DNA of 64,000 nucleotides from Candidatus Rubrimentiphilum sp. (GCA_035710515.1 DASTDE010000001.1:620001-684000), one strand, 5' to 3'. Positions 348 to 15,610 are shown, counted from the first letter of the stretch. Notes: a model not told the origin generated them from the letters alone. Numbers and translations: made by a program.

Positions 348-3300
348 ATGGTTCGAGCGTTCTTTGCCGTTGTGTTGCTGGGTGCGCTGGTCGCTGCCGC
401 GCCCGCTTCGCTCACGCCTGTTGCGCCAAGGTCCGAAGCGGGCAGCGGTGCGGAGACCGGCGTTTACGCGCCACCGCTCGCGGGGCCGCGCGCGAAGATC
501 AGCGGCACCGTCCAGAGCGATACCGCCGGGCCAACGGGTTTTTACGTAGTCACTTTCGACTCGCAAGGCAATCAGAAGTATTTCCATAGCACTACCGACG
601 CGCGCGGAAAATATCGCTTTGCTATTCCGGCCGGCGTGGCCGCATTTATGGTGTTCCGTCATTTTGACGCGCAGGGACATCCGGATGAAGGTGCACGCTG
701 TATCGTTTCGGGCGATCCGGCGCAACGCGTGGCCGGTACGCGCGAGTTGTTGCGCGCTAGTTCACATACGCCGGCGATAACCGGCGGCAACTCAGTTTTC
801 GAACGCAGTCAACCACTGACACTGCAGACGCGCGGCGTGGACGGTTCTGCCGCGAGCGTTCTGGTAGACGGATCGGCGCAAAACGTCGATACGCTGGCCG
901 CGTCGGACCGCAGCATCGTCGCGCAGGTGCACCCCGGCACTCCGCTCGGACGTCACGAACTCAGCGTGCAGTCCGGCTCGAAGCGCAGCGAGGCGGTTCC
1001 GGCAGATTTCATCGATGCGACTTTAACAGCTGGAGGTTCGCACGAAACCGGAGGCATTCAAACCGCCGTGCTCACGGTAACCGGCCTTCCGCCGGGCGAT
1101 CGCGCGATCGCGGATTTCGAAGTAAGCGGCAGCGCGGAACTTGCGCGGGGTGGATCGCAAACCAGCGTTCCGGTAGTCGGCGATCGCGCCAGCGTGGATG
1201 TGCGCGGCACGCGCGCGGGGCCGGCATTGATCCGCTGGCACTTGCAAGTGGACATTCCACCGTATTGGGGGCAGCAGGTCGCAGAGTCGACGCCCGTTCC
1301 TACGGCAACGCCGTATCCGTATTACACGACTTCGCGTCCTTCGCCGACGCCGACACATAAGATGACGGCGACGCCCACGCCGAAGCCGCCGAACAATAAC
1401 GATCACACGACGTCGCGCGAGTACACGCCGCCGCCCTACGGCCGCCGTACGCCCGGGCCCAAGACCACGACGCAGCCAACGCCAACGCCGCCGCCGCCGA
1501 CTCCAACCGCATACCCGACGCCGAGCGGCAGTCCATCGCCCACCCCAACGCCGTGCAACTACGAGATCGCGGACGGCGCGTTCGAACCGACGCAAGGCGT
1601 GTGGCAAGACGATCCGTTCTTTCCGAATATGCCCGGCAAACAGCTCACGCGACTGCACGACCTGGATCCGACGCCGCACTTTCTGGCGGAACTCGACATG
1701 ATCGAGGGACGCGACACCGTGCTTTGGGGCGTCAACCATTACATGGATCAGGGAAGCCGCGTCGATATCAACAGCCGCCACGCGATTACGTTCGTGATCA
1801 TGACGAACTGCACGCAAACCAAAGCCGTGCGCATCGCGTTCACCGTCTCGCAACGCGGCCAAAAGAAACTCATCATGAATTCGCAGGTGTTCAACGTGCC
1901 GCTCGAAGGGCCACGCAATGCCGACGGTACGATGAAGCGCTTCGTCTTGAACTTACCGCTGAGGACCGGCATACCGGCCGTGCCGTTCACGCTGGACGAA
2001 GGCGGTTACGACATTACAGGCACGCTCGTAACGATGCAGGGTGAAGACACAGGGCTGAGCGTGATAGTGACCGGTGATACGGTGGTCACGCATCCGCCGA
2101 CGCTGCACTTCGTGCCGATGATTCTCTTCTACGGCTCTACGCCGCCGCCGCCGCAACCAGGTGCACCGATTATCGGTATCACGCAAGCGCTGCGCGCGGA
2201 AAGCGCGAGCATGATTCCCGACTACTATCCCATCGCGCCGTTCAGTCTCCCGACCGTGCGCGAACGTTCCTGGTTCGTTTCATGGGAGGCCATCAAGAAC
2301 AACGACTTCTGGGACGCCACCAAATTCTTGACGGGTTACGTCCTGTCGGGGTTCGATCAAGATCAAGCCGACATCTTCGCCAATCTCGCGGTGGTCGAGC
2401 GATTCACCACCAGCATTTCCAATTTCCAGGGATTCGCGGCTTACATCAACGGTGCGAACCGCATGGTGATCGTGATGGGACAGATCAATTACGATACCGT
2501 GATGGGCAGCTCATCGATTGCAAGTTTCAACTTGGGGAACAAGGCCGTGCTGATGCGCGCGGGTGTGAACGCCGACACGGTCGCGCACGAAGTGGCGCAC
2601 ACGATCCCGCCGCCGAACTGGAATCCGGATCCGACCTGCGAGCTTCCCTATCACAATAAGGGAACGACGGGCGTGGTACCGGATCCGTACGGCTCCGGTA
2701 CGACCGCGAACGGCTACGCTGCGGGCGAGCGTCTTCGACTGAACGGCGTGCGCAAGCGCGTTTTCACCGATGGAACGATACACTTAATGGGCGGCTCCGT
2801 CATCGTTCCGACCAAGCGCGTGTACGCATACACGACGCAGTGCACGTACTGGCACTTAAAAGATGGAATGCTTACGCCACCCGATCCGCCGGTCTTCTTG
2901 GTGCGCGGTGTTCTGGCGCGGCGGGGTTCGACATACGCCGCGCTGCTCGGCCCGACGTACTCGCTCATGGGCGCGGCGGATCTGAAGTCCGACGCACGCG
3001 GCAGCTGGCACATTGCGCTGCTCGATGCGGGCGGCAAAACGCTGGGCACGTACGGTTTCACGCCGGTGTGGAACGACGAAAACGGCAAGCCGCGCCAAGC
3101 GATTCCCTTTGCATATCGCGTCCCGCAGTTGCCGGGCACAGCCGCAATTGTGTTGGAAGGCGAGCGACGGCGGTTAACGCTGCGTATGAGCCCAAGCCCG
3201 CCGGTCGTGCGTATTCTCGCGCCCACCGGTTCCGTGCGCGTCGGTGTGAACGGCGCGGTCAACGTGCGGTGGCAAGCGAGTGTGCAAACGGGGTACCGCC

Positions 3301-3482
3301 CGGTGAGCAGCGTCTTTGTATCGGACGACGGCGGCAAAACGTACGACGCGCAGGTCATCGAGAGTAGCGGCGACCATGCGACCGTATACGTCGATCCGCA
3401 CAAGCGCCGGCATCGCATTCAAGTGATCGTCAGCGACTACTCGCGCAGCAGCATCTCGTCGGTCGATTTCAAGACGCCATGA
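348..3482 (+). CDS. large secreted protein with HExxH zincin-type motif
   Basis: 1044 residues. The ATG at 348 has GGAGG at 337-341. Residues 1-20 are a signal peptide (FFAVVLLGALVAAAPA). An early carboxypeptidase-regulatory-like or Ig-like region (about 45-330) leads into a long Pro/Thr/Ser-rich linker (about 330-410) typical of exported multi-domain proteins. The catalytic-looking part contains HEVAH with H747, E748 and H751, the zinc site of gluzincin/metzincin peptidases; a downstream third ligand is not obvious. The C-terminal 100 residues form a beta-sandwich-like domain. Likely an extracellular or cell-surface metallopeptidase. The substrate is unknown and the family was not identified. 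Confidence 0.72.
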   Translation: MVRAFFAVVLLGALVAAAPASLTPVAPRSEAGSGAETGVYAPPLAGPRAKISGTVQSDTAGPTGFYVVTFDSQGNQKYFHSTTDARGKYRFAIPAGVAAFMVFRHFDAQGHPDEGARCIVSGDPAQRVAGTRELLRASSHTPAITGGNSVFERSQPLTLQTRGVDGSAASVLVDGSAQNVDTLAASDRSIVAQVHPGTPLGRHELSVQSGSKRSEAVPADFIDATLTAGGSHETGGIQTAVLTVTGLPPGDRAIADFEVSGSAELARGGSQTSVPVVGDRASVDVRGTRAGPALIRWHLQVDIPPYWGQQVAESTPVPTATPYPYYTTSRPSPTPTHKMTATPTPKPPNNNDHTTSREYTPPPYGRRTPGPKTTTQPTPTPPPPTPTAYPTPSGSPSPTPTPCNYEIADGAFEPTQGVWQDDPFFPNMPGKQLTRLHDLDPTPHFLAELDMIEGRDTVLWGVNHYMDQGSRVDINSRHAITFVIMTNCTQTKAVRIAFTVSQRGQKKLIMNSQVFNVPLEGPRNADGTMKRFVLNLPLRTGIPAVPFTLDEGGYDITGTLVTMQGEDTGLSVIVTGDTVVTHPPTLHFVPMILFYGSTPPPPQPGAPIIGITQALRAESASMIPDYYPIAPFSLPTVRERSWFVSWEAIKNNDFWDATKFLTGYVLSGFDQDQADIFANLAVVERFTTSISNFQGFAAYINGANRMVIVMGQINYDTVMGSSSIASFNLGNKAVLMRAGVNADTVAHEVAHTIPPPNWNPDPTCELPYHNKGTTGVVPDPYGSGTTANGYAAGERLRLNGVRKRVFTDGTIHLMGGSVIVPTKRVYAYTTQCTYWHLKDGMLTPPDPPVFLVRGVLARRGSTYAALLGPTYSLMGAADLKSDARGSWHIALLDAGGKTLGTYGFTPVWNDENGKPRQAIPFAYRVPQLPGTAAIVLEGERRRLTLRMSPSPPVVRILAPTGSVRVGVNGAVNVRWQASVQTGYRPVSSVFVSDDGGKTYDAQVIESSGDHATVYVDPHKRRHRIQVIVSDYSRSSISSVDFKTP

Positions 3483-3528
3483 CGGTGCTGTTGGGCGGTC
3501 TTTCCCCACGGCCGGAGAAGCCGCAAGA

Positions 3529-5088
3529 ATGAACCGTTGCATTGCGATAACGCTCATATTTGCATTTTTGCTCGGCCCATGTGCATCGAGCGCCTGGGCA
3601 TCCGGCTTACCGCCTGCCGCGTTTTCCGCGGTGACTATACCGCCGCAACGCATCAATCACGCGGTCGCAGCTCTCGATACGATTGCACGCAACATGCAGC
3701 GCAAGACCGGCGTCCCCGGAATGAGCATCGCCGTCGTGCACAACGACAAAGTGGTTTACCTAAAAGGATTCGGCGTGCGAAAAGCCGGCACGAACGAGCG
3801 CGTTGACGCCGACACCGTCTTTGAACTTGCATCCGTTTCAAAACCGGTGGGCGCCGCGGTGATCGCCGGAGCCGTAGGCCGCGGCGTCGTCAAATGGACG
3901 GACCCGTTACGAAAATATCTGCCCGGTTTTGCGCTCGCCGATCCATATGTTTCGCGCACCATTACGATCGCCGACATGTATGCACACCGGAGCGGGCTGC
4001 CCGACCACGCGGGCGATCTGCTTGAAGATCTTGGCTACAAGCGCGCGGCCGTCATTAAACGCCTGGCGTTCGAGCCGCTCGATCCGTTTCGGATCACGTA
4101 TCATTACACGAATTTCGGTCTAACCGCCGCGGCGCAAGCGGTCGCAAACGCGGCCCACACGAGTTGGGAAGACCTGTCGCGCGACACGCTCTATCGCCCG
4201 CTCGGCATGAACTCCACCAGCTCGCGGTTCGCTGATTATTGGAACGCAAAGAACAAGGCAATTCTTCATGTGCGTATCGGCAATACATGGGTGGCAAAGT
4301 ACACGCGTGACGCGGACGCGCAATCGCCCGCCGGCGGCGTGAGTTCCAGCGCGCGCGACATGGCACAATGGATGCGCTTTGAGCTGGCTAACGGCAAATA
4401 CAACGGAAAGCAGGTCGTGAGTGAAGCGGCATTGCTCGTGACGCGCAATCCGAACCTCATGCTTGCGCCGTTGAGCTCGCCGGTTAGCCGCGCGACCTTC
4501 TACGGCTTGGGAATTAACGTCGGTTACGATCCGGCCGGCAGACTTCGCCTGACGCATTCGGGGGCATTTTCCAACGGCGGGGCGACCACCGTCTTCATGT
4601 TACCGTCTGAAAACTTGGGGATCGTCGTCTTGACGAACGGCGCGCCGATCGGCGTGCCGGAAGCTATCGCGGCGAGTTTCCTCGATCTGGCGGAGTTCGG
4701 CAAACCTGAGCGGGACTGGCTGGCCGCATACGCTCAGCGCTTTGCAGCGCTGTCTGAAAATCCGAGCCCGCTCGCTCATAAGAAACCGCCGGCAAATCCG
4801 GCGCCGGCGCGGGCAAACGCCGCGTACGCCGGGACGTATAACAGCCGCTTTTATGGCCCCGTGACGATCGCCGCGCAAAGCGGGCAGCTTGTCATGTTGA
4901 TTGGTCCGAGGCGCGAAAGCTTTCCACTTACGCACTGGGACGGCGATACGTTCTCCTATATGCCGTCCGGCGAAAACGCGAACGGGATCGCCGGCATTAC
5001 ATTCGCATTTCCAGCCGGCGCGACGCACGCGAAGAGAATGACGATCGATTACTTGAACGAGAACGGCCTAGGCACGTTCACCCGATAA
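3529..5088 (+). CDS. serine hydrolase, beta-lactamase (class C / EstB) family
   Basis: 519 residues with an N-terminal signal peptide (cleavage near WASG). The three active-site motifs of the beta-lactamase fold are visible: SVSK with nucleophile S102 and K105, YTN with Y193 and N195, and HSG at 343-345 in place of KTG. This pattern is common in class C-like esterases, D-aminopeptidases and penicillin-binding-protein homologues. A beta-rich C-terminal extension (about 430-519, around AYAGTYNSRFYGP) resembles the lipocalin-like domain of many such hydrolases. A periplasmic or secreted hydrolase. Substrate cannot be told from sequence; antibiotic resistance should not be assumed. Confidence 0.88.
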   Translation: MNRCIAITLIFAFLLGPCASSAWASGLPPAAFSAVTIPPQRINHAVAALDTIARNMQRKTGVPGMSIAVVHNDKVVYLKGFGVRKAGTNERVDADTVFELASVSKPVGAAVIAGAVGRGVVKWTDPLRKYLPGFALADPYVSRTITIADMYAHRSGLPDHAGDLLEDLGYKRAAVIKRLAFEPLDPFRITYHYTNFGLTAAAQAVANAAHTSWEDLSRDTLYRPLGMNSTSSRFADYWNAKNKAILHVRIGNTWVAKYTRDADAQSPAGGVSSSARDMAQWMRFELANGKYNGKQVVSEAALLVTRNPNLMLAPLSSPVSRATFYGLGINVGYDPAGRLRLTHSGAFSNGGATTVFMLPSENLGIVVLTNGAPIGVPEAIAASFLDLAEFGKPERDWLAAYAQRFAALSENPSPLAHKKPPANPAPARANAAYAGTYNSRFYGPVTIAAQSGQLVMLIGPRRESFPLTHWDGDTFSYMPSGENANGIAGITFAFPAGATHAKRMTIDYLNENGLGTFTR

Positions 5089-5095
5089 CCGGTCG

Positions 5096-5551
5096 CTACA
5101 TGTGGAAGCGGTAGGTGTAACTAAAATCTTGGTCTTTGCCGTAACCATCGGGCGTGTGTATGAAACGGAAGTGCTTGAGCGTATACCCGGAAGGGCAGTC
5201 CCCGCTGCTATCGTTTCTAAACCCGTCGCTAAGCGAAAACGCGTTGTTCACATCGACGCAGTACCAGTCGTCCTCGTAGGTGCTGCCGCTCCAATTGATG
5301 CCGTCAGACGCTTGCGCATACACGTTGAAGCCGACACCATAGGTTTGGAAACTGCCCACGTACCGGCACGCGCCGCTTTCAATTTTCCACCAGCCTTGTG
5401 AAGAAAACGAGCCGACGGCAACCCAAATCGGCGCACTCGTATCGTTGCACGCCGTCAGCAGGACGTGCTGGCTTGAGGTTTGCGCGCTCGCCGAAGTCGA
5501 GACTAGCAACGGCAAAACCAGCGCTAAGCATACAGCAGACGCGCGAGTCAT
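5096..5551 (-). CDS. secreted DUF1036-like protein
   Basis: 151 residues, signal peptide to about ASAQ23. The mature part has the pattern of DUF1036 proteins: an early CNDTS..IWVAVG strand, GWWKIESGACRYVG, then NVYAQASDG and a late Cys-containing YCVDVNNAF. Four or more cysteines could form disulfides in the periplasm. DUF1036 has no settled biochemical role. It faces the preceding serine hydrolase gene tail to tail with 7 bases between. Confidence 0.7.
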   Translation of the reverse strand: MTRASAVCLALVLPLLVSTSASAQTSSQHVLLTACNDTSAPIWVAVGSFSSQGWWKIESGACRYVGSFQTYGVGFNVYAQASDGINWSGSTYEDDWYCVDVNNAFSLSDGFRNDSSGDCPSGYTLKHFRFIHTPDGYGKDQDFSYTYRFHM

Positions 5552-5631
5552 AAACGTATCTTACGACCTTCGCGGACGAACGTCAAAATGGGAGTCCAGG
5601 GCCGGGTGACGTGGCGTGGAATGGTCGCCAA

Positions 5632-6132
5632 ATGAACTCGAATATTTCGCGTAAGGTACTGCTCGGCGGCGTCGCATCTATTGGTTTGGCCACGGCGACC
5701 GAATTCGCCGGAAGGGCGGCGCAGAGCGCAGTCGTCGGTGCATGGAAACTTGAAAGCTTTAACGAGCGTGTCGCAGATGGTTCGTTTAAACCTCGCTTTG
5801 GGCCTAATCCGGTTGGTTACCTGATCTACACTGCCAGCGGTCGCGTGTCGGCCACGCTTTCCGGTATACACCGCCAGGCGCTCACGTCAGGCGATACATC
5901 AGCTGCGGCGGCGCACTGCAATGAGTCCGTGCATGATTTCTTGGCGTACGCCGGCACCTACGAGATTAAAGGGTCGACCGTTTTTCATACGATCGAAACC
6001 AGCGTGTTCACGAACCTTGTCGGCGTGACGCTGAAGCGCGGCTTTCAACTCAGCGGCGACAAACTCGTTATCCGCACGCTGCCCCCATACGTTTGGGGCA
6101 CTCAAAGTATGCTTGTCTGGCGCCGGAGCTGA
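5632..6132 (+). CDS. secreted lipocalin-like domain protein
   Basis: 166 residues from ATG 5632. A GTG 21 bases upstream (5611) is in frame and cannot be excluded, as neither has a clear Shine-Dalgarno sequence. NSNISRKVLLGGVASIGLATATEFAGRA is Tat- or Sec-like. The mature part opens with VVGAWKLESFNERVADGS and contains PVGYLIYTASGRVSATLSG and YAGTYEIKGSTVFHTIE, the signature of the lipocalin-like domain in small exported bacterial proteins. These form eight-stranded barrels of unknown ligand. It converges on the CHAT gene at 6138. Confidence 0.7.
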   Translation: MNSNISRKVLLGGVASIGLATATEFAGRAAQSAVVGAWKLESFNERVADGSFKPRFGPNPVGYLIYTASGRVSATLSGIHRQALTSGDTSAAAAHCNESVHDFLAYAGTYEIKGSTVFHTIETSVFTNLVGVTLKRGFQLSGDKLVIRTLPPYVWGTQSMLVWRRS

Positions 6133-6137
6133 TCTCG

Positions 6138-8960
6138 TTAATTGGCGTCGCCGTAAAGAACGCTCGGAGCCCAGTAATACGGCTGGCTCATTGCGGGGCT
6201 GGCAATCATATGTTTTTTTGCCTCTTGAAGCGCTTTAGCCGCGGATTCGCCCCCGTGAAGATTGGCAAAAAAATACGGCACCATCATCGGAGCTGCGGCA
6301 TCGGTAACCGGCCATAACGTGACCCCGACCGAATGCGCGCCGGCGTAGAGAAAGGCGCGAGTGAGCGCGGAAATGCCGTCGCCCGACGGACGCTCTCCGG
6401 AAGCCGAATAAGCTCCTGTCCAGCATGCGGAAAGCAGCACGGCGCGAGCATTTAAATGAAGCGTCGATATCTTTGAAGCCGTGATCCACCCATCGATCTC
6501 CGGGTGCGCCAGCACGATCGCCGGCTCGACGCCATTGCTTGGAAGCGCGCCGTGCGTCGAAAAAAGGATGGCGCCATAGCGCTGGAGCGCGCCGGATCGA
6601 TCGAGCGAGATCAGCGTCTGCCAGGACGCGTTGTTTCCGGTCTTGACCGTCGCGCCGGACGGCACGTGAAACGCTTGCGCGGAGAGAGTCGCTTCGCGCA
6701 GCGAGTTAGGCAACGGTTCCAGGTTTTGCAGATCGACCGACTTCAACGCGTTTTCCACGGCGGCGTTCCGTTTAACGCCCTTGCCGAACGCGGGCTGCGC
6801 GAACGCCAAGAACGGGTGTGCGCTAGCCGCGGCGGGAAGAGCGCGCGCGACCTGCAGAAGCTGCGGCGAGCCGCTGTACGATATCGGCCACGTACAGATT
6901 AAATAGCCCGCCGAACAATGCGGCTCGGGTTTGCCGGTAACGAGTGCTTCCCACGCCACGTTGTAAAGCGGACCGGACGGCACAATGATCAGCGAGCGGG
7001 TTGAAGGCGGAATAACGACGTCGCTAAAGAGCTTCCGGTAGAGGAGCGTGCTCCACGCCTTAAACGAGGCCTGATCGCGATCCGCGATCGAGTCAACGAA
7101 TGCGTGACGTATCATGCGCTCGACATCCGGTTCGCCGCCGGTTCCGGCGCGCGGAATAACGGTAACCTTGTAAGCGTCTTTGGCGATCGTCCAGACCGCG
7201 ATGGTATGTGGCAGCCAAGCATAGACGAGCATCGTTTCACCGCGATGCAGGACGTTGTTGCGAAGCGTTGCGATGTCAACCGGCGGTGAATGAAAGATCT
7301 GATAGTAGCGCCTATCGGAGCCGGTGCCGGAGGCGAGCCGCGCCGCGATTGCTTCGGACTGCCGCTGAAGCGCGACGATCTGCGGCCATAGATTGGCGGC
7401 TTCGTCTGATTTCGCCGCTCCCGCGATCTGTAGCGCGGCATAGCGATCTGCGTCCCGGTCGAGCTGCCGCTGTATGCGGATGTCGGCCAGCATGTTGGGG
7501 GATGCGCCGACTACGAGCCGGTCGAGCTGTGCCTTGCGCATGAGATCGAGGGTGCTGCGAGCGATCCGGGATTGAAGGACGTCAAAGGCGCGCCAGTCGT
7601 AACGGGCGGCGTTTCCGGTCTTGTACAGCTGCAGCAAGTACTCGATGTAGTCGTCGTAGACGCGCACTTTGTCTTCAAGAAATGCCTCGCGGTGATTCAG
7701 CGTCAATCGCCCGCGCAACGTTTCGATGGTTGCGATCGCGTTCTCGTACTCGGCCACCGCGTGCGGTGCGTCGCTCAATGCCGCATAGGCGCGAGCGATA
7801 TTATAAGCGCCTTTCCACCGGGCATTCGGAGACGGAGCTTCGTTGATTCCGTAGCTTACGTTTTCCAATACTTGAAGCATGTGCGGGCGGGCGGCCGGAT
7901 CGCCGGCAGTCGCGCGCGCGTCGGCAAGTGCTTTCAGGCTGGCGACTTCCCAGCCGAGATCCGCGGCGGCCAGACCCGGGTGCTCGAGCAGATCGTTGGA
8001 TTCGGAAAGGTCTTTCGCGGCTTCTTTGTCATCGCCAAGATCGAGCTCCGCCTGACCGCGCGTAAATAGAGCTGCCGCCAGCGCGGTGGTGTGACCCCAA
8101 AGTGGATCCTCAAGCAGCTCCGCCGTGAAACGGTCCGGAACAATATGCGTCCTGCCGGGTTGCGTGCACGCGTCGATAATGCCGGCGAAGCGCGCTGTGG
8201 CGGATTGCGGTTTGCGGTAGAGCCCGACGGCTACGGTTGCTTGAGCCTGCGCCTCCCGTAAGGCACTCCCTCGTCTTTCGCCCGACGGATCTTCGCGCGA
8301 GGCTTGCGTAAAATACGCCGATGCGAGCTCCGCTGCAAAACCGGCGACCGGATCGCCGCCGCCGGCGCTTCGCGACGCCTTCGCCAAATCGCGCTTGGCC
8401 GCCGCGTCGTCACCGAGGCTGGTCTCCACGCTCGCGCGCGTGAGTTCGACGAGCGCCAAAACCGCATGGGGCGAGGAGAACGTGTCGCAGTGATTCTGTA
8501 ACGGCCGGCGGGCGTCGCGCGCGGCGGCTTCGGCCAATCTCAGTGCATCGAGCGCCTCCTCGTAATTGCCCAGAGCCGACGCGGCGCGCGCCTGAACGAT
8601 GTAATCGCCGACGAGCGAACGCGTGTAATGCAGGCGTTCGTGCAGTAGGATCGCGCTCTTGACCTCATCACTTGCAATCGAATAATCGCCGAGTTGAAAA
8701 TCCGCGGCTGCGGTTGCGTAGTTGAGCCAAGCCAGCAAACTCGGTGCGCCCTTGTGGTTTCGTGCGTCCGAAAACGAGTCTTCCCAGGCGATTGTGGCGC
8801 GAACGAACTCGCCGGTTTCAAACGCATGAAACCCGTCCGCGTAATTTTGCAACGCACTTGCCGTGGTGCGTTCGGCCGGTGGAGCGTTCGTTGCGCTGAC
8901 GAAGAGCAGCGCGCTGAGCGCGAGAGTCGAAAGGCCTAGGTTTTTGAAGGCGCCGGGCAT
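6138..8960 (-). CDS. TPR-CHAT caspase-like peptidase
   Basis: 940 residues. A signal-like hydrophobic N-terminus (about 8-26) is followed by a long helical tetratricopeptide-type array (about 30-560) and a C-terminal CHAT domain (about 600-935). The caspase-fold dyad is present: H803 in ILFSTHGA and C846 in VLLSACWTG. Conserved CHAT features such as LIIVPSGPLYNVAWEAL and the late LWPVTDAA and PYYWAPSVLYG are visible. CHAT proteins cleave partner proteins in bacterial signalling and anti-phage systems. It is the last gene of a three-gene operon (10418 to 6138) whose coding regions overlap by 14 and 25 bases, divergent from a CHASE2 membrane protein. Likely exported, which would place the protease in the periplasm. 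Confidence 0.9.
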   Translation of the reverse strand: MPGAFKNLGLSTLALSALLFVSATNAPPAERTTASALQNYADGFHAFETGEFVRATIAWEDSFSDARNHKGAPSLLAWLNYATAAADFQLGDYSIASDEVKSAILLHERLHYTRSLVGDYIVQARAASALGNYEEALDALRLAEAAARDARRPLQNHCDTFSSPHAVLALVELTRASVETSLGDDAAAKRDLAKASRSAGGGDPVAGFAAELASAYFTQASREDPSGERRGSALREAQAQATVAVGLYRKPQSATARFAGIIDACTQPGRTHIVPDRFTAELLEDPLWGHTTALAAALFTRGQAELDLGDDKEAAKDLSESNDLLEHPGLAAADLGWEVASLKALADARATAGDPAARPHMLQVLENVSYGINEAPSPNARWKGAYNIARAYAALSDAPHAVAEYENAIATIETLRGRLTLNHREAFLEDKVRVYDDYIEYLLQLYKTGNAARYDWRAFDVLQSRIARSTLDLMRKAQLDRLVVGASPNMLADIRIQRQLDRDADRYAALQIAGAAKSDEAANLWPQIVALQRQSEAIAARLASGTGSDRRYYQIFHSPPVDIATLRNNVLHRGETMLVYAWLPHTIAVWTIAKDAYKVTVIPRAGTGGEPDVERMIRHAFVDSIADRDQASFKAWSTLLYRKLFSDVVIPPSTRSLIIVPSGPLYNVAWEALVTGKPEPHCSAGYLICTWPISYSGSPQLLQVARALPAAASAHPFLAFAQPAFGKGVKRNAAVENALKSVDLQNLEPLPNSLREATLSAQAFHVPSGATVKTGNNASWQTLISLDRSGALQRYGAILFSTHGALPSNGVEPAIVLAHPEIDGWITASKISTLHLNARAVLLSACWTGAYSASGERPSGDGISALTRAFLYAGAHSVGVTLWPVTDAAAPMMVPYFFANLHGGESAAKALQEAKKHMIASPAMSQPYYWAPSVLYGDAN

Positions 8961-9598
8961 GCCGGTTTTTCAAGCCCGATCTCGCAGAGCCGCGGCCAAA
9001 AATGCGCGCGAACCCTGGCCGCGTATGCCTGCCGCTGCGCATCGTCAACCTTGAGCTGATCGATCCGCAGCGTGTGCCCGTCCTGGATCATTTTTTCAAA
9101 GTCGTAGTTCACCTCAAACGAACAGCCGTGTATTCCGGTCGGACACTTTATGTCGACGGGACGGCTGCCGCTTTGGCGGCGGCCCCGGCCGGCGTTCTTG
9201 GCGTGGTTGTAAAAGTCGCGCGCTTCCTGGATCACGGTGGTAGCGCGTTGCTGCCACACGTCCTGATGCATGGAGTTGTTCTCAACGTCCGAAGCGATTC
9301 GCTCGAGCAATCCGTTGACTGAGGCGCGCAGGTCGTTGTAATCGTCATCGAGAGACTGGACCACATCCTTGTCCGGAACACGCTTGTGAGCAGTCGCCAG
9401 CACCTGTTGGGTCGGCGCTTGTAATTCGTAGATGTCGCCGAGGAATGGAACGTCGGGTGTTGCAGCGCCGTGCGCGGGAGTGGGGAGTAGCAATGCTACG
9501 ATAAATGCGATGAATAAAGACAATACTGGACGAGCAGTGATAGGAATCACCTCCAAGCGATCGATCGATTCGGTCTTACGAACATCACCCCTTTGCAA
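8936..9598 (-). CDS. exported helical protein of the CHAT operon
   Basis: 220 residues with a hydrophobic segment at about 24-41 (VLSLFIAFIVALLLPTPAHG) that looks like a signal peptide with a long n-region. The mature part is mostly helical and has a GTGIHGCSF-like region (CPTGIHGCSFEVNYDF) with paired cysteines. No family recognised. It overlaps the CHAT gene downstream by 25 bases and the upstream gene by 14, so it is translationally linked to both and probably a partner or substrate of the peptidase. An internal GTG at 9550 is an alternative start but leaves little n-region. Confidence 0.6.
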   Translation of the reverse strand: MQRGDVRKTESIDRLEVIPITARPVLSLFIAFIVALLLPTPAHGAATPDVPFLGDIYELQAPTQQVLATAHKRVPDKDVVQSLDDDYNDLRASVNGLLERIASDVENNSMHQDVWQQRATTVIQEARDFYNHAKNAGRGRRQSGSRPVDIKCPTGIHGCSFEVNYDFEKMIQDGHTLRIDQLKVDDAQRQAYAARVRAHFWPRLCEIGLEKPACPAPSKT

Positions 9599-10418
9599 GC
9601 CAGCGCATGAGCCGCCGGCCCACGTCGCCTAATTGCGGGGCGAGAGCGAGTTTTTCATACGCGGCCAGATACCAACGCTTGCCTTGTTTCGCAAGCTGTG
9701 CGGCTTCGACAACTGGACAAAGAGTTTGGTCGACGTCCGGCGGGCAGGCGACGGCGGGAATGGACCGCGGACCGACAACGGCGACTTGTCCATCATCAAA
9801 CGCGCCATTCGCATCCACGATTTTCACGGTGTACGCACCAGGCGGCAGCGTAAGCGCCCTCATGACGACCGCGCGTTCGTTGCTTGTGGCACTGGAAACG
9901 AGCGTTCCACCGGCAGAAATGATTCGCACGCTGAACGGGGCGCGGCCGCCGCTCCAAGCGATCGCAAAACCTTTGCCGTCAATGCGCGCCGCCTCAACAC
10001 CGCCGGCCAGTTGGAGCAGCGGCGGAGGTGAAACCGGCCCCGCGGGACGTCCGACAGAAGCGACCCGGCTGCCGGTATCTTGATCGTCTTTTGCGGTACG
10101 CAAGAGCGACGCGATCGACGCGAAGATGTTGCGCCAAGCGGTGACGATTGCGTTCGGCGCGCTCCGCGCGGGTGCGATAACTTTACATCCGGGCGATGCC
10201 TGCGCAATGCACAGGGGTGAATGCTGTGCGTCCACCGTGTAATTGCGGCCGTCGACGGTGAGGTGAAGCACGAGGCGTCGTCCTCCGCTTCGCGAGAGCA
10301 CGCTAATGCGATCGCCGGCGTCGAGCGGCAGCAGCGGTGCCACGCGTTTTGCCCGGACCGAACTGGTTATGCGGTAACCCGCAGCCGGACCGGTATAATC
10401 CGTGACGTATGCTATCAT
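9585..10418 (-). CDS. first gene of CHAT operon; beta-sandwich protein of unknown function
   Basis: 277 residues. The N-terminal about 75 residues (PLDAGDRISVLSRSG, then LVLHLTVDGRNYTVDA) resemble a FecR-like or small beta-barrel domain. The middle is Ala/Pro-rich, and a beta-sandwich-like segment follows (PFSVRIISAGGTLV, PPGAYTVKIVDANG). A CPPDVDQTLCPVVEAAQLA segment and a helical tail end it. There is no signal peptide from this start. Its ATG (10418) is only 8 bases from the divergent ATG of the CHASE2 gene. Function unknown; probably a sensor or scaffold for the co-encoded peptidase. Confidence 0.6.
   Translation of the reverse strand: MIAYVTDYTGPAAGYRITSSVRAKRVAPLLPLDAGDRISVLSRSGGRRLVLHLTVDGRNYTVDAQHSPLCIAQASPGCKVIAPARSAPNAIVTAWRNIFASIASLLRTAKDDQDTGSRVASVGRPAGPVSPPPLLQLAGGVEAARIDGKGFAIAWSGGRAPFSVRIISAGGTLVSSATSNERAVVMRALTLPPGAYTVKIVDANGAFDDGQVAVVGPRSIPAVACPPDVDQTLCPVVEAAQLAKQGKRWYLAAYEKLALAPQLGDVGRRLMRWLAKG
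10394..10399 (+). promoter_or_regulatory. candidate -10 box for the CHASE2 gene
   Basis: A perfect TATAAT lies 28 bases before the ATG at 10427, inside codons 7-9 of the divergent gene. No convincing -35 box is found 16-19 bases upstream. Because the two divergent starts are 8 bases apart, each promoter must lie in the other gene's coding sequence, which couples their control. Confidence 0.4.
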
Positions 10419-10426
10419 CCTAAGTA

Positions 10427-11782
10427 ATGCTCCGTCGATTTATGGCGAACCTTGTCATTGGATTTGCGCTGTTGGCGTTGTTGCATACGCCGTTCGTCGA
10501 GCATAACAGCGCCGTCGTTTCGACGAGGGATTCAGTGCTCTCGTGGCAGATGGCGAAACTCAGCGGCGCCGTTCCGTTTGACTCTTTTGCTTTCATCGAT
10601 GCCGATGAAGCAACGCAGGCGGCTTGGGGCTTCAATCCCGTCACGCCGCGCGCGCAGATTGCAAAGCTCGTCACGTTCGCCCTGAAGGCGAAGCCGAGCG
10701 TCGTTTTGATCGATCTGGACTTGACATGGCCTAGTGCAAACGCCGCCTCCGGCGACGTGCAGCTGGCGCGCGTCCTCGCGGCTCATACGGCGTCGTGCGT
10801 TCGGGCTTGTACGCCCGTGCTCTTAGTGCGCGCTGTCGCACCAACGCCGCGCTTCGCGTTTGCCTCGTCTCCGGATCGCATGGCGTTATCTCTCATTCCG
10901 AGCTTTCTCGATAAAGCGCTGCGAACAAATCCTACGGTGGAACGCGCGCCCGGGATCGAATGGGGTACGGCGGACAACCAGCAAGATGATGATGGGGCAG
11001 TGCGGCGTTGGTATCTTTGGACGGATGCTTGCGTTAACGAGGGGAAGGCCGTTGCGCTGCCATCGGTAGCTTTGCTCGCGGCCGCTGCCGCCAGTGACAC
11101 ACCCCTGAACAATGTGCGCGCGCGCCTGCAGACGTCGGCGGCAACCTGCGTGAAGCGCGGAGACGCAATGCCGCGGATCGCTGCTGCGCGCGGGGACGAA
11201 TCATTGCGCTTGCGCTCGGTAACGGTATCGCTTTCGTCAAACGGAATCGAGCGCCGCATTTTTTATCGCCTGCCGTGGCCGGCCAACGCGGACGACTCAA
11301 ACGACGACGGCCGCCTGCTCGTGTTGAAGGCGGGTACGATTCTTTCTCACGCTGCCAGCGATGCCTCGCTTTTGCGGGGAAAGGTTGTCGTCATCGGGTC
11401 GAGCGCCGCGGTAGCAGGCGATCGGGAGGCGACGCCGCTCGGAATCATGCCCGGGTCGGTCGTGCTTATCAACGCGATCAGCACGCTGATCCGGGGCGAT
11501 CAATTACACGATCTTGGAGTCGTTGGGACGATCGGTATAGAGCTCTTCCTTATTGTTCTGGTGAGTTATCTCTTCGCGGTGCTTCCCGCGACGCCGGCGC
11601 TCGTGCTTTCGCTCGCTATCGTTTTCGCCGGCACGCTGACAGTGGGATTTGCGGCGCTTAATTCCGGCGCATGGATCGATTCGGTGTTCCCCGCTGTCGG
11701 CGTTATTCTGCACGAAGCGTTCCACCGGGCTCGGGACTACATCCACGCGCTCAAGCAGACGCCTTACAAACACACGCGCTAA
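10427..11782 (+). CDS. CHASE2-domain membrane sensor protein
   Basis: 451 residues. One N-terminal membrane segment (about 6-24) is followed by a large extracytoplasmic CHASE2 domain. Typical elements are seen: FAFIDADEATQAAWGF early, VVLIDLDLTWPS, LRGKVVVIGSSAAVAGDREATPLGIMPGSVVLINAISTLI, then three closely spaced hydrophobic helices (about 365-440). CHASE2 normally precedes a cyclase, kinase or similar output. Here the protein ends just after the helices with a short basic tail (QTPYKHTR), so any output must come from a partner. Divergent from the CHAT operon, which is the obvious candidate. Confidence 0.85.
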   Translation: MLRRFMANLVIGFALLALLHTPFVEHNSAVVSTRDSVLSWQMAKLSGAVPFDSFAFIDADEATQAAWGFNPVTPRAQIAKLVTFALKAKPSVVLIDLDLTWPSANAASGDVQLARVLAAHTASCVRACTPVLLVRAVAPTPRFAFASSPDRMALSLIPSFLDKALRTNPTVERAPGIEWGTADNQQDDDGAVRRWYLWTDACVNEGKAVALPSVALLAAAAASDTPLNNVRARLQTSAATCVKRGDAMPRIAAARGDESLRLRSVTVSLSSNGIERRIFYRLPWPANADDSNDDGRLLVLKAGTILSHAASDASLLRGKVVVIGSSAAVAGDREATPLGIMPGSVVLINAISTLIRGDQLHDLGVVGTIGIELFLIVLVSYLFAVLPATPALVLSLAIVFAGTLTVGFAALNSGAWIDSVFPAVGVILHEAFHRARDYIHALKQTPYKHTR

Positions 11783-11793
11783 CGCGCTGCCGC

Positions 11794-12660
11794 CTACTGG
11801 AAGGGCGGAACGATGAAGACGTATGCCGGGATGCTGCGGGGATAATGAATATCATCGAGCGTGTAATGCCAGACGCCATGGTGCGTGGAAATTCCGAAGA
11901 CCCGAAACGTTCCGTCGATTATTCCGTCGGTTAAGGTCCAATAGCCGCCAACGTCGTCGAAGTGCTGCTCGACGAGTCCGTGGAATCCGAACGCGTCCCG
12001 GACACCGAATCGCAGCATGCAAAACTCGTTTGTCTTGAGGTTGATTACAACGTCGCTGAGCTGATGCTGCGGCGCACGATCGCGCGCCTCCGTGTGAAGC
12101 GCGTGCCCCGGGCTTCCGTTGGGGCATGCTTGCTCTCCGCGATCTAGTAAGCGGTAGATCGTCGGACCCATCACGTGCACCGCCGCAATCTGGCGCATCG
12201 TCGAAGCCGCTGCCGGCGCCGGCGTTTCACGCGCGGAGACCGGCACCTCAACGTCTTGGTAGTTCAACATGCCGTCGCGCAGCGCGCGGTACGTGCCGTA
12301 CCAAGTCGGATCGAAAAATGAACGGCCGGTAACGTAGCGCGTGCCGTCAGCATCGATGATCTCGCTCGCGTAGTCGTCAGTACGGTGTCGAATCTGCCAC
12401 GAACTTGGCTCGTCGCCGCTGTGAATGCCGAGCCAAACATAATGATTCTGTATCGTAAGTCTGACGGCCAGCCCATCGCTGCGTGAGTGCAAGTTGTAAG
12501 TTTCAAATGTAGGCTGCGCGCGTGAAGAAGTGGCGTTAACAGCTGCGATGTAGAGACTTTCGGCGTACGTTTGATCGGCCAGCGCCGGCCGGCCTTGGCC
12601 GATAAGGCAGCCCAACAGCAAGAATGCGGATGCGACGAAACCGCCGAGCGTTCTCAACAT
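11794..12660 (-). CDS. putative lipoprotein of unknown function
   Basis: 288 residues from ATG 12660 (MLRTLGGFVASAFLLLGC), which gives a short signal with a lipobox-like LLGC and Cys18. A further ATG at 12696 is in frame. The mature part is rich in aromatic and charged residues, for example DDYASEIIDADGTRYVTGRSFFD and WTLTDGIIDGTFRVFGIS, and suggests a beta-structured secreted protein. No family recognised. It ends 11 bases past the CHASE2 gene, which converges on it, and is divergent from the membrane protein gene at 12708. Confidence 0.55.
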   Translation of the reverse strand: MLRTLGGFVASAFLLLGCLIGQGRPALADQTYAESLYIAAVNATSSRAQPTFETYNLHSRSDGLAVRLTIQNHYVWLGIHSGDEPSSWQIRHRTDDYASEIIDADGTRYVTGRSFFDPTWYGTYRALRDGMLNYQDVEVPVSARETPAPAAASTMRQIAAVHVMGPTIYRLLDRGEQACPNGSPGHALHTEARDRAPQHQLSDVVINLKTNEFCMLRFGVRDAFGFHGLVEQHFDDVGGYWTLTDGIIDGTFRVFGISTHHGVWHYTLDDIHYPRSIPAYVFIVPPFQ

Positions 12661-12707
12661 ATCCGGAATACGAAAGGGAGCGCCGGAATGTTCCATCGTA
12701 GGAGAGC

Positions 12708-14618
12708 ATGGTGCGAGTTACTCTGGAAAGGCTCGGCGCCGTTTTCGTCACGGCAGTGCTCGCATATTTTCTTACGCTGCGCCTATTCTTCCCCGGATAT
12801 ATCGCACTTCCGATTCCATATCACCCCGATATGTATTCGGCGGTCGACTTTGCGTCCAGAGGTTTGAACTTCGCAAGCTTCTTGTTGGCCCCGCGGCCGC
12901 TCTATTTCGAAACGGTCTTGTTCGCCGGCCATTTTGGGCTAGAGGGCTCGCTGCTCTTCTTTGATGCGATCGTCTTGCTCGATCTCGCGTTGGCGATCGT
13001 GTTGCTCGAGCGGGTCGTCCTTCATCGCAGGCTTCCATGGTTAGTCGTGCTTGGCACGCTGCTGTTGGCGATGGCCGGACCCGGCTTTTACAAGCAGCCT
13101 GGCTCCGACGTTGGCTTTCACGTTGCGCTGCTTTGTGGACTTGCGGGCGTCTGCGTTTGGGAACTGCGCTCGCAGAAACATCAGATCGCGGCGCTTTGCC
13201 TGACGGCGCTATTTTTCGTCCTAAGCGTGCTGGCTAATGAAAGTCTTATCCCGGCGCTCGTTATCTATGGTGTCGTGGCTGCATTTCGCAGCCGCGCATC
13301 CCCGGCGATTGCCGCAGCGTTAGCGGGACTTCCGTTTCTCGCGATTGCCGCATCGTTTGGCGACAGCCAGCTAACGCATTCACCCTTTGTCAAGATCAGC
13401 TCCGCAGCCACTTATCCGTACAAGATCGATCTGTCGTTGACTTCGGTTTTGCTTTGCGCTCGATATTACGTCGTGTCCCTTTTTAACGCCGGCTTCCTGA
13501 CCTTACTGGCCGTGAGCGCGTTCGGGCTATGGCTGCGCCGGCGCTTGAAGATTGCCGCGATCCTCGTCGTTGCGGCACTCTCGCTCTATTTGCCGTACTG
13601 CGTGTTGCCCAATCACTTGAACGACGTCTATCAATGGGTTCCGATGCCGCTGCTCATGCTGCTCGTGCCACTTGCATGGGCCGATTCTCCCGATGAACTC
13701 AGTGCTGGGAGTAACGTGAAACTTGCCGGACGCGTGGCGCTCGCGCTTTCATTGTGTTTCGCGATCGGGTTCCAAAGTACGCAGTATCTCGATCAGAAGC
13801 ACTGGACCGCGGTTGCGATTGCCCAGAATCGCGCAGTCATCGACGGTCTTCGTTCCATGAAGTCGCGGATCAGCGCGGCTAGATCGGTGCTTGTGACGGG
13901 GTTAGCGTTCGGAAGATGGCCGTTCATGCAAAGCGCCGCATTCCTCTCGCATGAGTTGAACTTTCCCGGCGAATGGACCGTGACGACGGAGCCCGGCTTT
14001 CCGCCCATCAATTATCAAACAGTTGCTAGGCCTATCGATTATGGCCGCATACGATGGAGCGATTACGATCTGATCGTCGTTTTCAATCGGGACGGCAAAC
14101 TTGCGGCGGCGTATAATCGTGAACAATTCCGAGCGGAGGTCGCGCGGCTCGGACTACGCAGGCTCTCAAATCGGGGTCTGGTCGACTTGATGAACCTCTA
14201 CTATCCTCCAGGAGTGATCCCGCCTGCGAGCGCGGCTGAGGGCGCGCGGCAGGGACTGTATCTCGATACGGCGCCCGATCTGTGCTGTTTTCTCAACGGA
14301 AGCCCGTCGCTGCAATTGCGTCGGCCGCTTAGGGCCGGAGTCGTTGTCTTCACGTTTGAAGTGCCACACACCGCGCCTTTTGCCGATCAGCCGGAACGCG
14401 TCCAAATGTTTTTCAACAATATCTCGGCAGGGCCGCCCGTGACGTTAACCGCGGGCATCCATGAAGTCAGCTTTAGGCTGACGCGATCTTTGGCGAGGAG
14501 TGCGCAGCTCACGGCCACCATGCGCATGTCTGTCGCGTACGTTCCGAAGCAGATTGGAATGAACGATGACACGCGCCAGTTAAGCATCAAGCTGTTGCGA
14601 GTGGACTATAGGCGCTAG
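12708..14618 (+). CDS. polytopic membrane protein, possible GT-C-type glycosyltransferase
   Basis: 636 residues. The ATG has GGAGA at 12700-12704. Roughly ten hydrophobic helices lie in the first 410 residues, and a soluble, beta-rich extracytoplasmic domain (about 430-636) follows. An early PYHPDMYSAVDFASRG loop has acidic residues after the first helix, as in GT-C mannosyl- and arabinosyltransferases, but no diagnostic motif is decisive. Likely membrane glycan or lipid-linked sugar transfer, with low certainty. Its last 32 bases overlap the convergent HNH gene. Confidence 0.6.
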   Translation: MVRVTLERLGAVFVTAVLAYFLTLRLFFPGYIALPIPYHPDMYSAVDFASRGLNFASFLLAPRPLYFETVLFAGHFGLEGSLLFFDAIVLLDLALAIVLLERVVLHRRLPWLVVLGTLLLAMAGPGFYKQPGSDVGFHVALLCGLAGVCVWELRSQKHQIAALCLTALFFVLSVLANESLIPALVIYGVVAAFRSRASPAIAAALAGLPFLAIAASFGDSQLTHSPFVKISSAATYPYKIDLSLTSVLLCARYYVVSLFNAGFLTLLAVSAFGLWLRRRLKIAAILVVAALSLYLPYCVLPNHLNDVYQWVPMPLLMLLVPLAWADSPDELSAGSNVKLAGRVALALSLCFAIGFQSTQYLDQKHWTAVAIAQNRAVIDGLRSMKSRISAARSVLVTGLAFGRWPFMQSAAFLSHELNFPGEWTVTTEPGFPPINYQTVARPIDYGRIRWSDYDLIVVFNRDGKLAAAYNREQFRAEVARLGLRRLSNRGLVDLMNLYYPPGVIPPASAAEGARQGLYLDTAPDLCCFLNGSPSLQLRRPLRAGVVVFTFEVPHTAPFADQPERVQMFFNNISAGPPVTLTAGIHEVSFRLTRSLARSAQLTATMRMSVAYVPKQIGMNDDTRQLSIKLLRVDYRR

Positions 14619-15204
14619 GAATAAGCTGCCAGGGCAGAATCAGCGCGCTTAGGCGCTTGCCGACGTTGCGTCTTCCGTGGGTCGGCGTTAGGCTGTGACA
14701 GTTTGGGCAGAGCATGCGTAGGTTTTCGAGCCGGTAGTCGTCGTTTATGCCGTTTATATGGTCGATTTGAATTGAGAGTGGTTTACCGCGCCACTCAGAA
14801 ATGCCGCATCGAGAGCACTCGTTCTTTAGAATGCCTTCTTTTAGAAGTCGCCGTTTAATAGCGCTGCGGTTGCCGGCACGCAATAATATCTCAAGCGGCT
14901 TTAGCACCGGACGGCTGCGAATGGCGCCGCGGTCTCTTGCCTTTTGCCACGTCCGGCCGCCGAACCCAAAATACTCGCGGCACACCGCCCAGGAGTTGCC
15001 TAAATCGTAGTACGCCTGGATTTCATCCCAATTATACTTGGGATGGTACTTCGGATGAGATACCGTCCTCACGAGCCCTCTTGCGCGCGCTTTGTACCAG
15101 CCGCCAACTGTAAATCCGTAGGTTTGGGCGCACTCGCGCACGGAATGTCCCTGCTCGTGGTATCGCTGGATTTCTTCCCAGTCGAATTTAGGCTTCCAAG
15201 GCAT
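14587..15204 (-). CDS. HNH endonuclease (copy 1 of tandem pair)
   Basis: 205 residues from the ATG at 15204 (MPWKPKFDWEEIQ). Two repeated N-terminal segments (FDWEEIQRYHEQGHSVRECAQTYGF and YNWDEIQAYYDLGNSWAVCREYFGF) look like helix-turn-helix DNA-binding modules. The C-terminal HNH core has CSRCG, the catalytic HIDH-type QIDHINGINDD, and CPNCHS zinc ligands, with the usual LENLRMLCPNCH sequence. Homing or phage-type HNH nucleases have this layout. It overlaps the related gene upstream by 17 bases. Two DNA-binding repeats here against one in the neighbour point to unequal duplication. Confidence 0.88.
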   Translation of the reverse strand: MPWKPKFDWEEIQRYHEQGHSVRECAQTYGFTVGGWYKARARGLVRTVSHPKYHPKYNWDEIQAYYDLGNSWAVCREYFGFGGRTWQKARDRGAIRSRPVLKPLEILLRAGNRSAIKRRLLKEGILKNECSRCGISEWRGKPLSIQIDHINGINDDYRLENLRMLCPNCHSLTPTHGRRNVGKRLSALILPWQLIPSAYSPLATA

Positions 15205-15610
15205 CCGTGCTTCCTCGTCTCGTATTGCGACCTCCAAAGGTTTCGGTCTGGCTGTGACAATTTGGGCACAGCATGCGCAGGTTCTCGATGCGGTGATCGT
15301 TCTTGACGCCGTTAATGTGGTCTAAATGGAGAGACAGCGGCTGGCCAAACCACTCACTTATTCCGCATTCGTAGCACCTGAGCCGAAGCAAGCCTTCATC
15401 TAAGAGTCGTCTACGGGCTTGCCAGCGAGTTGTTGTGTTCAACTTGAGGTAATGCAGAACCGTAAGCTGGCGAGGCTTGACTCTTAGGACGCCGCGCTTA
15501 ATAGCATCTGTGCCGGAGCTCTGCGAGAACCCAAATTTTGACCTGCAGTCCGCGTAAGTGTGCCCGCTGTCGTAGTGTTGCTGGACTTTCGCCCAATCGT
15601 ATCTTGGCAT
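15188..15610 (-). CDS. HNH endonuclease (copy 2 of tandem pair)
   Basis: 140 residues. A single N-terminal helix-turn-helix-like repeat (YDWAKVQQHYDSGHTYADCRSKFGF) is followed by the same HNH core as the neighbour: CYECG, HLDHINGVKNDH and CPNCHS. The two cores are close paralogues. The gene lies just downstream of a terminator that ends the tRNA-Gln/tRNA-Glu transcript, a common insertion site for mobile DNA. No integrase, direct repeat or attachment duplication was seen. Possibly a remnant of a phage or a group of free-standing homing-type nucleases. Confidence 0.86.
   Translation of the reverse strand: MPRYDWAKVQQHYDSGHTYADCRSKFGFSQSSGTDAIKRGVLRVKPRQLTVLHYLKLNTTTRWQARRRLLDEGLLRLRCYECGISEWFGQPLSLHLDHINGVKNDHRIENLRMLCPNCHSQTETFGGRNTRRGSTDALEA

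What the first reader, a model, noticed from the sequence alone, without database searches (positions are those of the whole stretch)
6138..11782. Divergent CHAT peptidase operon and CHASE2 sensor: possible signalling or defence cassette
The TPR-CHAT protein keeps its H803/C846 dyad and is co-transcribed with two unrecognised proteins, overlapping by 14 and 25 bases. A CHASE2 membrane protein without any output domain starts 8 bases away in the other direction. CHAT peptidases are known effectors in type III-E CRISPR and other immune systems, and CHASE2-CHAT combinations exist in cyanobacteria. Here the parts are split, and the peptidase looks exported. The unknown partners could be the substrate and a scaffold.
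Basis: partly seen in the sequence, partly recalled or inferred. Interest (0 to 1): 0.72.

Follow-up and report, generated by a model that had tools for sequence, protein, structure and literature searches.

The report
Membrane sensor with exported caspase-like protease
A little-studied soil bacterium carries a conserved gene set in which a membrane sensor with no signalling tail of its own travels with an undescribed exported partner protein and an exported caspase-like protease, suggesting that the protease itself is the sensor's output, outside the cell's inner membrane.

Summary
The genes, the 14- and 25-base overlaps, the 8-base divergent gap, the His803/Cys846 dyad, and a CHASE2 protein with no output domain are all there. 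The cluster is more than one genome's oddity. CHASE2, the 277-residue protein and TPR-CHAT recur together across Candidatus Eremiobacterota, and again in Thiotrichaceae (Gammaproteobacteria). In this phylum 11 of 16 copies of the 277 family lie near CHASE2 and 14 of 16 within about 5 kb of CHAT. Their CHASE2 proteins group together, apart from the cyclase-linked CHASE2 of the same genome. One relative fuses the 277-type Ig/helical part to CHAT. The 277 family has no Pfam or NCBIfam model. Cyanobacteria show a parallel set with DUF928 in its place. The 220-residue protein is rare, but its one relative overlaps an exported caspase-TPR gene in the same way. Nothing matches PADLOC. Best reading: a periplasmic, CHASE2-gated proteolysis module, not a known defence system. 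The window copy is odd. CHASE2 is inverted, and the 277 protein lacks the signal peptide its relatives keep, so this copy may be altered or decaying. Ligand, substrate and activity are unknown.

The parts
6138..8960 (-). Exported TPR-CHAT cysteine peptidase, 940 aa; CHAT domain at residues 640-938, H803/C846; degenerate N-terminal TPR region; hydrophobic N-terminus
   Evidence: Pfam PF12770 E 3.8e-44; dyad positions; homologues with the same dyad in relatives
8936..9598 (-). 220-aa exported helical accessory protein (TTG start), overlaps CHAT by 25 bases; rare family
   Evidence: one distant relative, L194:7288-7938, which overlaps an exported caspase-TPR gene by 23 bases; alignment score 87 against shuffles 28 +/- 4.4, 0 of 2000 reach it
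9585..10418 (-). 277-aa member of an unnamed family linked to CHASE2 and CHAT: N-terminal beta domain, Ig-like domain (about 131-216), three C-terminal helices; this copy lacks the signal peptide present in relatives
   Evidence: homologues beside CHASE2/CHAT; model pLDDT 78.8; signal-peptide comparison; no Pfam or NCBIfam family
10427..11782 (+). CHASE2 membrane sensor, 451 aa, one N-terminal and several C-terminal transmembrane segments, no output domain
   Evidence: Pfam PF05226 E 7.1e-22; hydrophobicity; tree places it with other 277-linked CHASE2 proteins
10419..10426 (.). 8-base gap between the divergent start codons; any promoter of either gene must lie inside the other gene

Best explanation
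The cluster encodes a periplasmic sensing-and-proteolysis module. CHASE2 sits in the inner membrane with its sensor domain in the periplasm and carries no cytoplasmic output. The 277-family protein (beta domain, Ig-like domain, C-terminal helices) links the receptor to the exported TPR-CHAT peptidase, whose His-Cys dyad cuts an envelope or surface protein when the receptor's ligand state changes. In this genome an extra exported protein of 220 residues accompanies the peptidase, probably as a chaperone- or inhibitor-like partner. Shown: gene linkage across two phyla, a common CHASE2 lineage, an intact dyad, hydrophobic signal-like N-termini, purifying selection in relatives, and a fusion of the 277-type part to CHAT. 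Inferred: periplasmic location, physical contacts, ligand gating, proteolytic activity and the substrate.
For: The 277 family, CHASE2 and CHAT are neighbours in G002, G005, G022, G034, G043 (two loci), G051, G094, G108, G129 and G000. Of 13 genomes of the phylum with the 277 family, 12 also have CHAT, against 37 of 148 overall (hypergeometric 1.4e-7; genomes are not independent lineages). The same linkage occurs in Thiotrichaceae (L086, L147, L153, L154). Sixteen of 17 sampled 277-linked CHASE2 proteins form one group (96/92) apart from cyclase-linked and cyanobacterial ones. L158_81 fuses the Ig/helical part of the 277 family to CHAT. Other clan CD peptidases occur beside the pair: caspase C14 near CHASE2-277 in L148, and a C14-TPR-CHAT fusion in L153. 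Nearly all 277 relatives with a resolved start, and nearly all linked full-length CHAT proteins, have hydrophobic N-termini. dN/dS is 0.08-0.24 in relatives. Cyanobacteria carry CHASE2 + DUF928 + TPR-CHAT triads and DUF928 beside CHAT-CHASE2 fusions.
Against: No activity, ligand or substrate is known. Some 277 copies lack CHASE2 or CHAT nearby (L146, G022:C119; G004 has no CHASE2). In the window the 277 protein has no signal peptide in any frame, which conflicts with a periplasmic adaptor in this very genome. In cyanobacterial CHAT-CHASE2 fusions the CHAT domain precedes the membrane domain and would be cytoplasmic, so location is not constant across the wider set. Profile comparison found no homology between DUF928 and the 277 family.
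Confidence: 0.5

Rival explanations
1. The 277-family protein is the substrate: CHASE2 controls cleavage of this envelope protein by CHAT, like the LapD receptor, LapG periplasmic cysteine protease and LapA adhesin (known to the author, not tested here).
For: Recurrent linkage of the three; the N-terminal domain model matches 5ix9 'Cell surface anchoring domain' at Z 8.3, rmsd 2.4, 72 aligned residues, next match 2.4.
Against: The Ig/helical part is fused to CHAT in L158, which fits an adaptor; the Foldseek search with the same model has no match under E 1; no conserved cleavage-site-like motif was recognised in the low-confidence linker of the model.
Confidence: 0.17
2. Immune or self-killing cassette: CHAT kills or arrests the cell on sensing attack, as TPR-CHAT acts in type III-E CRISPR or caspase-like proteins in other immune systems.
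For: CHAT and caspase-like peptidases are used in such systems (PMC10028731); patchy distribution, 13 of 149 genomes of the phylum for the 277 family.
Against: No PADLOC match for any of seven proteins; exported-type N-termini; no cas, nuclease, NTPase or phage gene recognised among the flanking window genes scanned.
Confidence: 0.1
3. The module is real in relatives, but this copy is altered or decaying: a rearrangement placed CHASE2 8 bases from the 277 gene and removed its signal peptide and upstream region.
For: The 277 protein begins where relatives' mature chains are expected to begin; the upstream codons and other frames hold no signal peptide; CHASE2 runs the other way from most relatives; degenerate TPRs.
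Against: All four frames are open and full length, the dyad is intact, overlaps suggest translational coupling, and the cysteine pair near residues 70 and 81 seen in several exported relatives is kept.
Confidence: 0.18
4. Chance neighbours: four unrelated genes.
For: Some relatives in the same genus lack the set (G003, G006).
Against: Repeated linkage across the phylum and in Thiotrichaceae, a fusion, and a common CHASE2 lineage.
Confidence: 0.02

Closest known systems
Cyanobacterial CHASE2 / DUF928 (PF06051) / TPR-CHAT clusters
   Same: CHASE2 gene, an exported partner of about 250 residues and an exported-type TPR-CHAT gene side by side (L186, L188, L191, L193); DUF928 also sits beside CHAT-CHASE2 fusions (L182, L184, L190)
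   Different: DUF928 and the 277 family show no detectable homology by profile comparison; cyanobacterial CHASE2 proteins are a separate clade. A CHASE2-DUF928 neighbourhood in one Nostoc is mentioned in PMC5587647, without CHAT
Caspase homologue fused to CHASE2 in Trichodesmium (PMC3501461, PMC2853523)
   Same: Pairs a CHASE2 receptor with a clan CD peptidase
   Different: One protein, p20 caspase rather than CHAT, peptidase proposed in the cytoplasm; no adaptor
Csx29 TPR-CHAT of type III-E CRISPR (Craspase; PMC10028731)
   Same: TPR plus CHAT with His-Cys dyad
   Different: Gated by RNA through Cas7-11; no sequence match of the window CHAT to any PDB chain; no cas genes recognised here
HetF-type CHAT protein of cyanobacteria
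   Same: CHAT peptidase family
   Different: Window protein scores 13.7 bits against a cut-off of 1200 for NF045509
LapD-LapG-LapA adhesin release (author's knowledge)
   Same: Membrane receptor gating a periplasmic cysteine protease; 277 N-terminal domain resembles a cell-surface anchoring domain fold
   Different: No sequence relation tested or seen; CHASE2 instead of LapD, CHAT instead of LapG

Membership tests
CHAT peptidases (PF12770) | CHAT domain over the curated cut-off | tested here: met
   151.7 bits against cut-off 24
CHAT peptidases (PF12770) | His and Cys of the dyad in conserved motifs | tested here: met
   H803 in STHG, C846 in LSAC; both invariant in the aligned relatives
CHAT peptidases (PF12770) | Proteolytic activity | not testable with these tools
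   needs a bench assay
CHASE2 sensors (PF05226) | CHASE2 domain over the cut-off, flanked by N-terminal and C-terminal membrane segments | tested here: met
   78.6 bits against 26.3; hydrophobic segments at 1-24 and 360-412
CHASE2 sensors (PF05226) | Cytoplasmic output domain (common in CHASE2 receptors, not required for the Pfam family) | tested here: not met
   no other Pfam or NCBIfam domain in 451 aa; the same in linked relatives
Known anti-phage defence systems (PADLOC) | match of a component to a PADLOC model | tested here: not met
   0 families for seven proteins
Type III-E CRISPR Craspase | Cas7-11 and CRISPR array beside TPR-CHAT | tested here: inconclusive
   no cas gene among the immediate neighbours scanned with Pfam, NCBIfam and PADLOC; an array and the wider genome were not searched
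DUF928 (PF06051) | Pfam match of the 277 protein | tested here: not met
   no match in 13 family members; hhalign E 0.39
CHASE2 / 277-family / TPR-CHAT module (proposed here) | all three genes neighbours and CHASE2 in the linked group | tested here: met
CHASE2 / 277-family / TPR-CHAT module (proposed here) | signal peptide on the 277 protein | tested here: not met
   hydrophobic maximum 0.39 against about 2-3.5 in relatives with a resolved start
Cell-surface anchoring domain fold (5ix9) | shared fold of the N-terminal domain | tested here: inconclusive
   VIA Z 8.3, rmsd 2.4, 72 residues, next 2.4; no Foldseek match under E 1

The most novel reading that the evidence does not exclude
A caspase-fold counterpart of LapD-LapG-LapA: a CHASE2 receptor without cytoplasmic output gates an exported TPR-CHAT peptidase through, or against, an envelope protein with a surface-anchoring domain, controlling release or maturation of surface proteins in several phyla, with the 277 family and DUF928 as interchangeable middle parts.
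Probability: 0.15. Interest if true: 0.8.

Novelty: new variant of a known kind. Interest (0 to 1): 0.56.

Why it matters
CHASE2 domains are known as receptors feeding cytoplasmic enzymes, and CHAT peptidases mostly as intracellular effectors. A conserved unit in which a CHASE2 receptor has no output of its own but travels with an exported caspase-like peptidase would put receptor-gated, caspase-type proteolysis in the bacterial envelope. It also gives a testable role to a protein family without a name (277 family) and a neighbour role to DUF928.

Tried and rejected
Genome-collection scans with alignments of the 277 family and of CHASE2 failed for lack of a conserved stretch; a CHAT alignment worked. 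DUF928 as a homologue of the 277 family: not supported by profile comparison, kept only as a positional analogue. Homology of the 220-aa protein to the roughly 300-aa proteins next to CHASE2 in L059-L061: none (hhalign E 0.25). Sequence matches to solved structures: none for CHAT and only weak matches for the 277 family. Structure matches of the Ig domain (gingipain, T9SS tails, SIAE; Z about 8) are taken as a generic Ig fold. No match of the 277 model to a whole known protein was listed. Structured RNA in 3000-15000: none. TPS exoproteins as substrate: near 5 of 12 cyanobacterial DUF928 loci and one 277-CHASE2 locus, but none in the Eremiobacterota loci scanned, so only a hint. My first dN/dS for CHAT of G005/G002 used a wrong frame and was redone. 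An early alignment held one row in a wrong frame (L062) and was replaced. The literature library gave no paper on a CHASE2-CHAT-partner module; it holds open-licence papers only.

Full report
What is there. CHAT and CHASE2 are clear Pfam members; the 220- and 277-residue proteins belong to no Pfam or NCBIfam family. H803 and C846 sit in STHG and LSAC, and the corresponding residues are invariant among the aligned relatives. The organism belongs to Candidatus Eremiobacterota, judged from the named relatives. The genome has one CHAT gene and one other CHASE2 gene, a CHASE2-cyclase about 13 kb away.

Is it a unit? Searching relatives separately with each protein returned the same contigs for CHAT, the 277 protein and CHASE2. 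Across 149 genomes of the phylum the 277 family occurs in 13. The CHASE2 domain (76 of 148 genomes) and CHAT (37 of 148) are much more widespread, yet 11 of 16 copies of the 277 family have CHASE2 within about 1.3 kb of the match, and 14 of 16 have a CHAT domain within about 5.3 kb. One of the two copies without either, G001, is a fragment at a contig end. In most loci the order is CHASE2, 277, CHAT in one direction (L060, L061, L064, L065, L157). The 277-linked CHASE2 proteins are short and lack an output domain. Apart from L067, they form one group (support 96/92) with those of Thiotrichaceae, separate from the cyclase-type CHASE2 of the same genome and from cyanobacterial ones. Thiotrichaceae carry several such sets (L086, L147-L149, L152-L154).

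Function by association. In L158 the Ig/helical half of the 277 family is fused to CHAT behind a signal-peptide-like N-terminus. In L148 a caspase (C14) gene lies about 2 kb from the CHASE2-277 pair, and in L153 the nearby peptidase is a C14-TPR-CHAT fusion. So the recurrent partner of the receptor pair is a clan CD peptidase, usually with an exported-type N-terminus. The signal-peptide calls rest on hydrophobicity only. In cyanobacteria the place of the 277 family is taken by DUF928: CHASE2-DUF928-TPR-CHAT triads, and DUF928 beside CHAT-CHASE2 fusions. DUF928 is not detectably homologous to the 277 family. TPS-type surface exoproteins lie near 5 of 12 of these cyanobacterial loci and one Thiotrichaceae CHASE2-277 locus, a possible hint to the substrate.

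Anatomy of the 277 protein. The model (pLDDT 78.8) shows an N-terminal beta domain, a helix, an Ig-like domain and three C-terminal helices. The Ig part matches many Ig folds at Z about 8. The N-terminal domain, modelled alone (pLDDT 85.6), matches one chain, 5ix9 'Cell surface anchoring domain', at Z 8.3, rmsd 2.4, 72 aligned residues, with the next at 2.4. Foldseek itself gave it no match under E 1, so this is a lead, not a test.

The 220 protein. It looked like an orphan, but one distant relative is real: 216 aa in G025, alignment score 87 against shuffles 28 +/- 4.4, none of 2000 reaching it. That gene overlaps by 23 bases an exported-type caspase-TPR gene, just as the window gene overlaps TPR-CHAT by 25. 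A partner role for exported TPR clan CD peptidases is therefore likely, although two cases are few.

What is odd about this copy. CHASE2 is turned round, and the 277 protein starts about where its relatives' mature chains start, with no signal peptide in any upstream frame. Relatives are under purifying selection (dN/dS 0.08-0.24), but no close relative of this copy was found to test it. It may be rewired or decaying.

Verdict. The most likely mechanism is CHASE2-gated proteolysis in the periplasm through a 277-family adaptor. Linkage, common lineage, fusion and dyad are shown; contacts, gating, location, activity and substrate are inferred. I found no description of this module in the open papers searched.

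Noticed in passing
L182, L184, L186, L188, L190, L191, L193 (cyanobacterial genomes): DUF928 genes recurrently sit between CHASE2 and TPR-CHAT genes or beside CHAT-CHASE2 fusions; a parallel module that the papers searched do not describe.
   Followed up: partly
L149:2709-6245, L186:12541-15390, L191:14526-16499, L193:14160-17001, L184:9870-13190, L189:16616-18001: TPS-domain surface exoprotein genes lie within about 8 kb of CHASE2/DUF928/CHAT or CHASE2/277 genes; possible substrates.
   Followed up: partly
L153:12678-16076: A single Parabeggiatoa protein combines a caspase C14 domain, TPRs and a CHAT domain.
   Followed up: partly
L059:8575-9477, L060:11707-12612, L061:12338-13240: A conserved exported-type protein of about 300 residues with no Pfam family sits next to CHASE2 in three relatives.
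   Followed up: partly
G000:C1:616936-617763 (about 2-3 kb before the window): The genome's other CHASE2 protein is a CHASE2-adenylate/guanylate cyclase.
   Followed up: yes
window 14587-15610 (-): Two overlapping neighbouring ORFs (216 and 140 aa) fall into one similarity cluster, apparently a local duplication.
   Followed up: no
L154:3995-6151: Three tandem copies of the 277 family beside two CHASE2 genes in Parabeggiatoa, suggesting local expansion.
   Followed up: no
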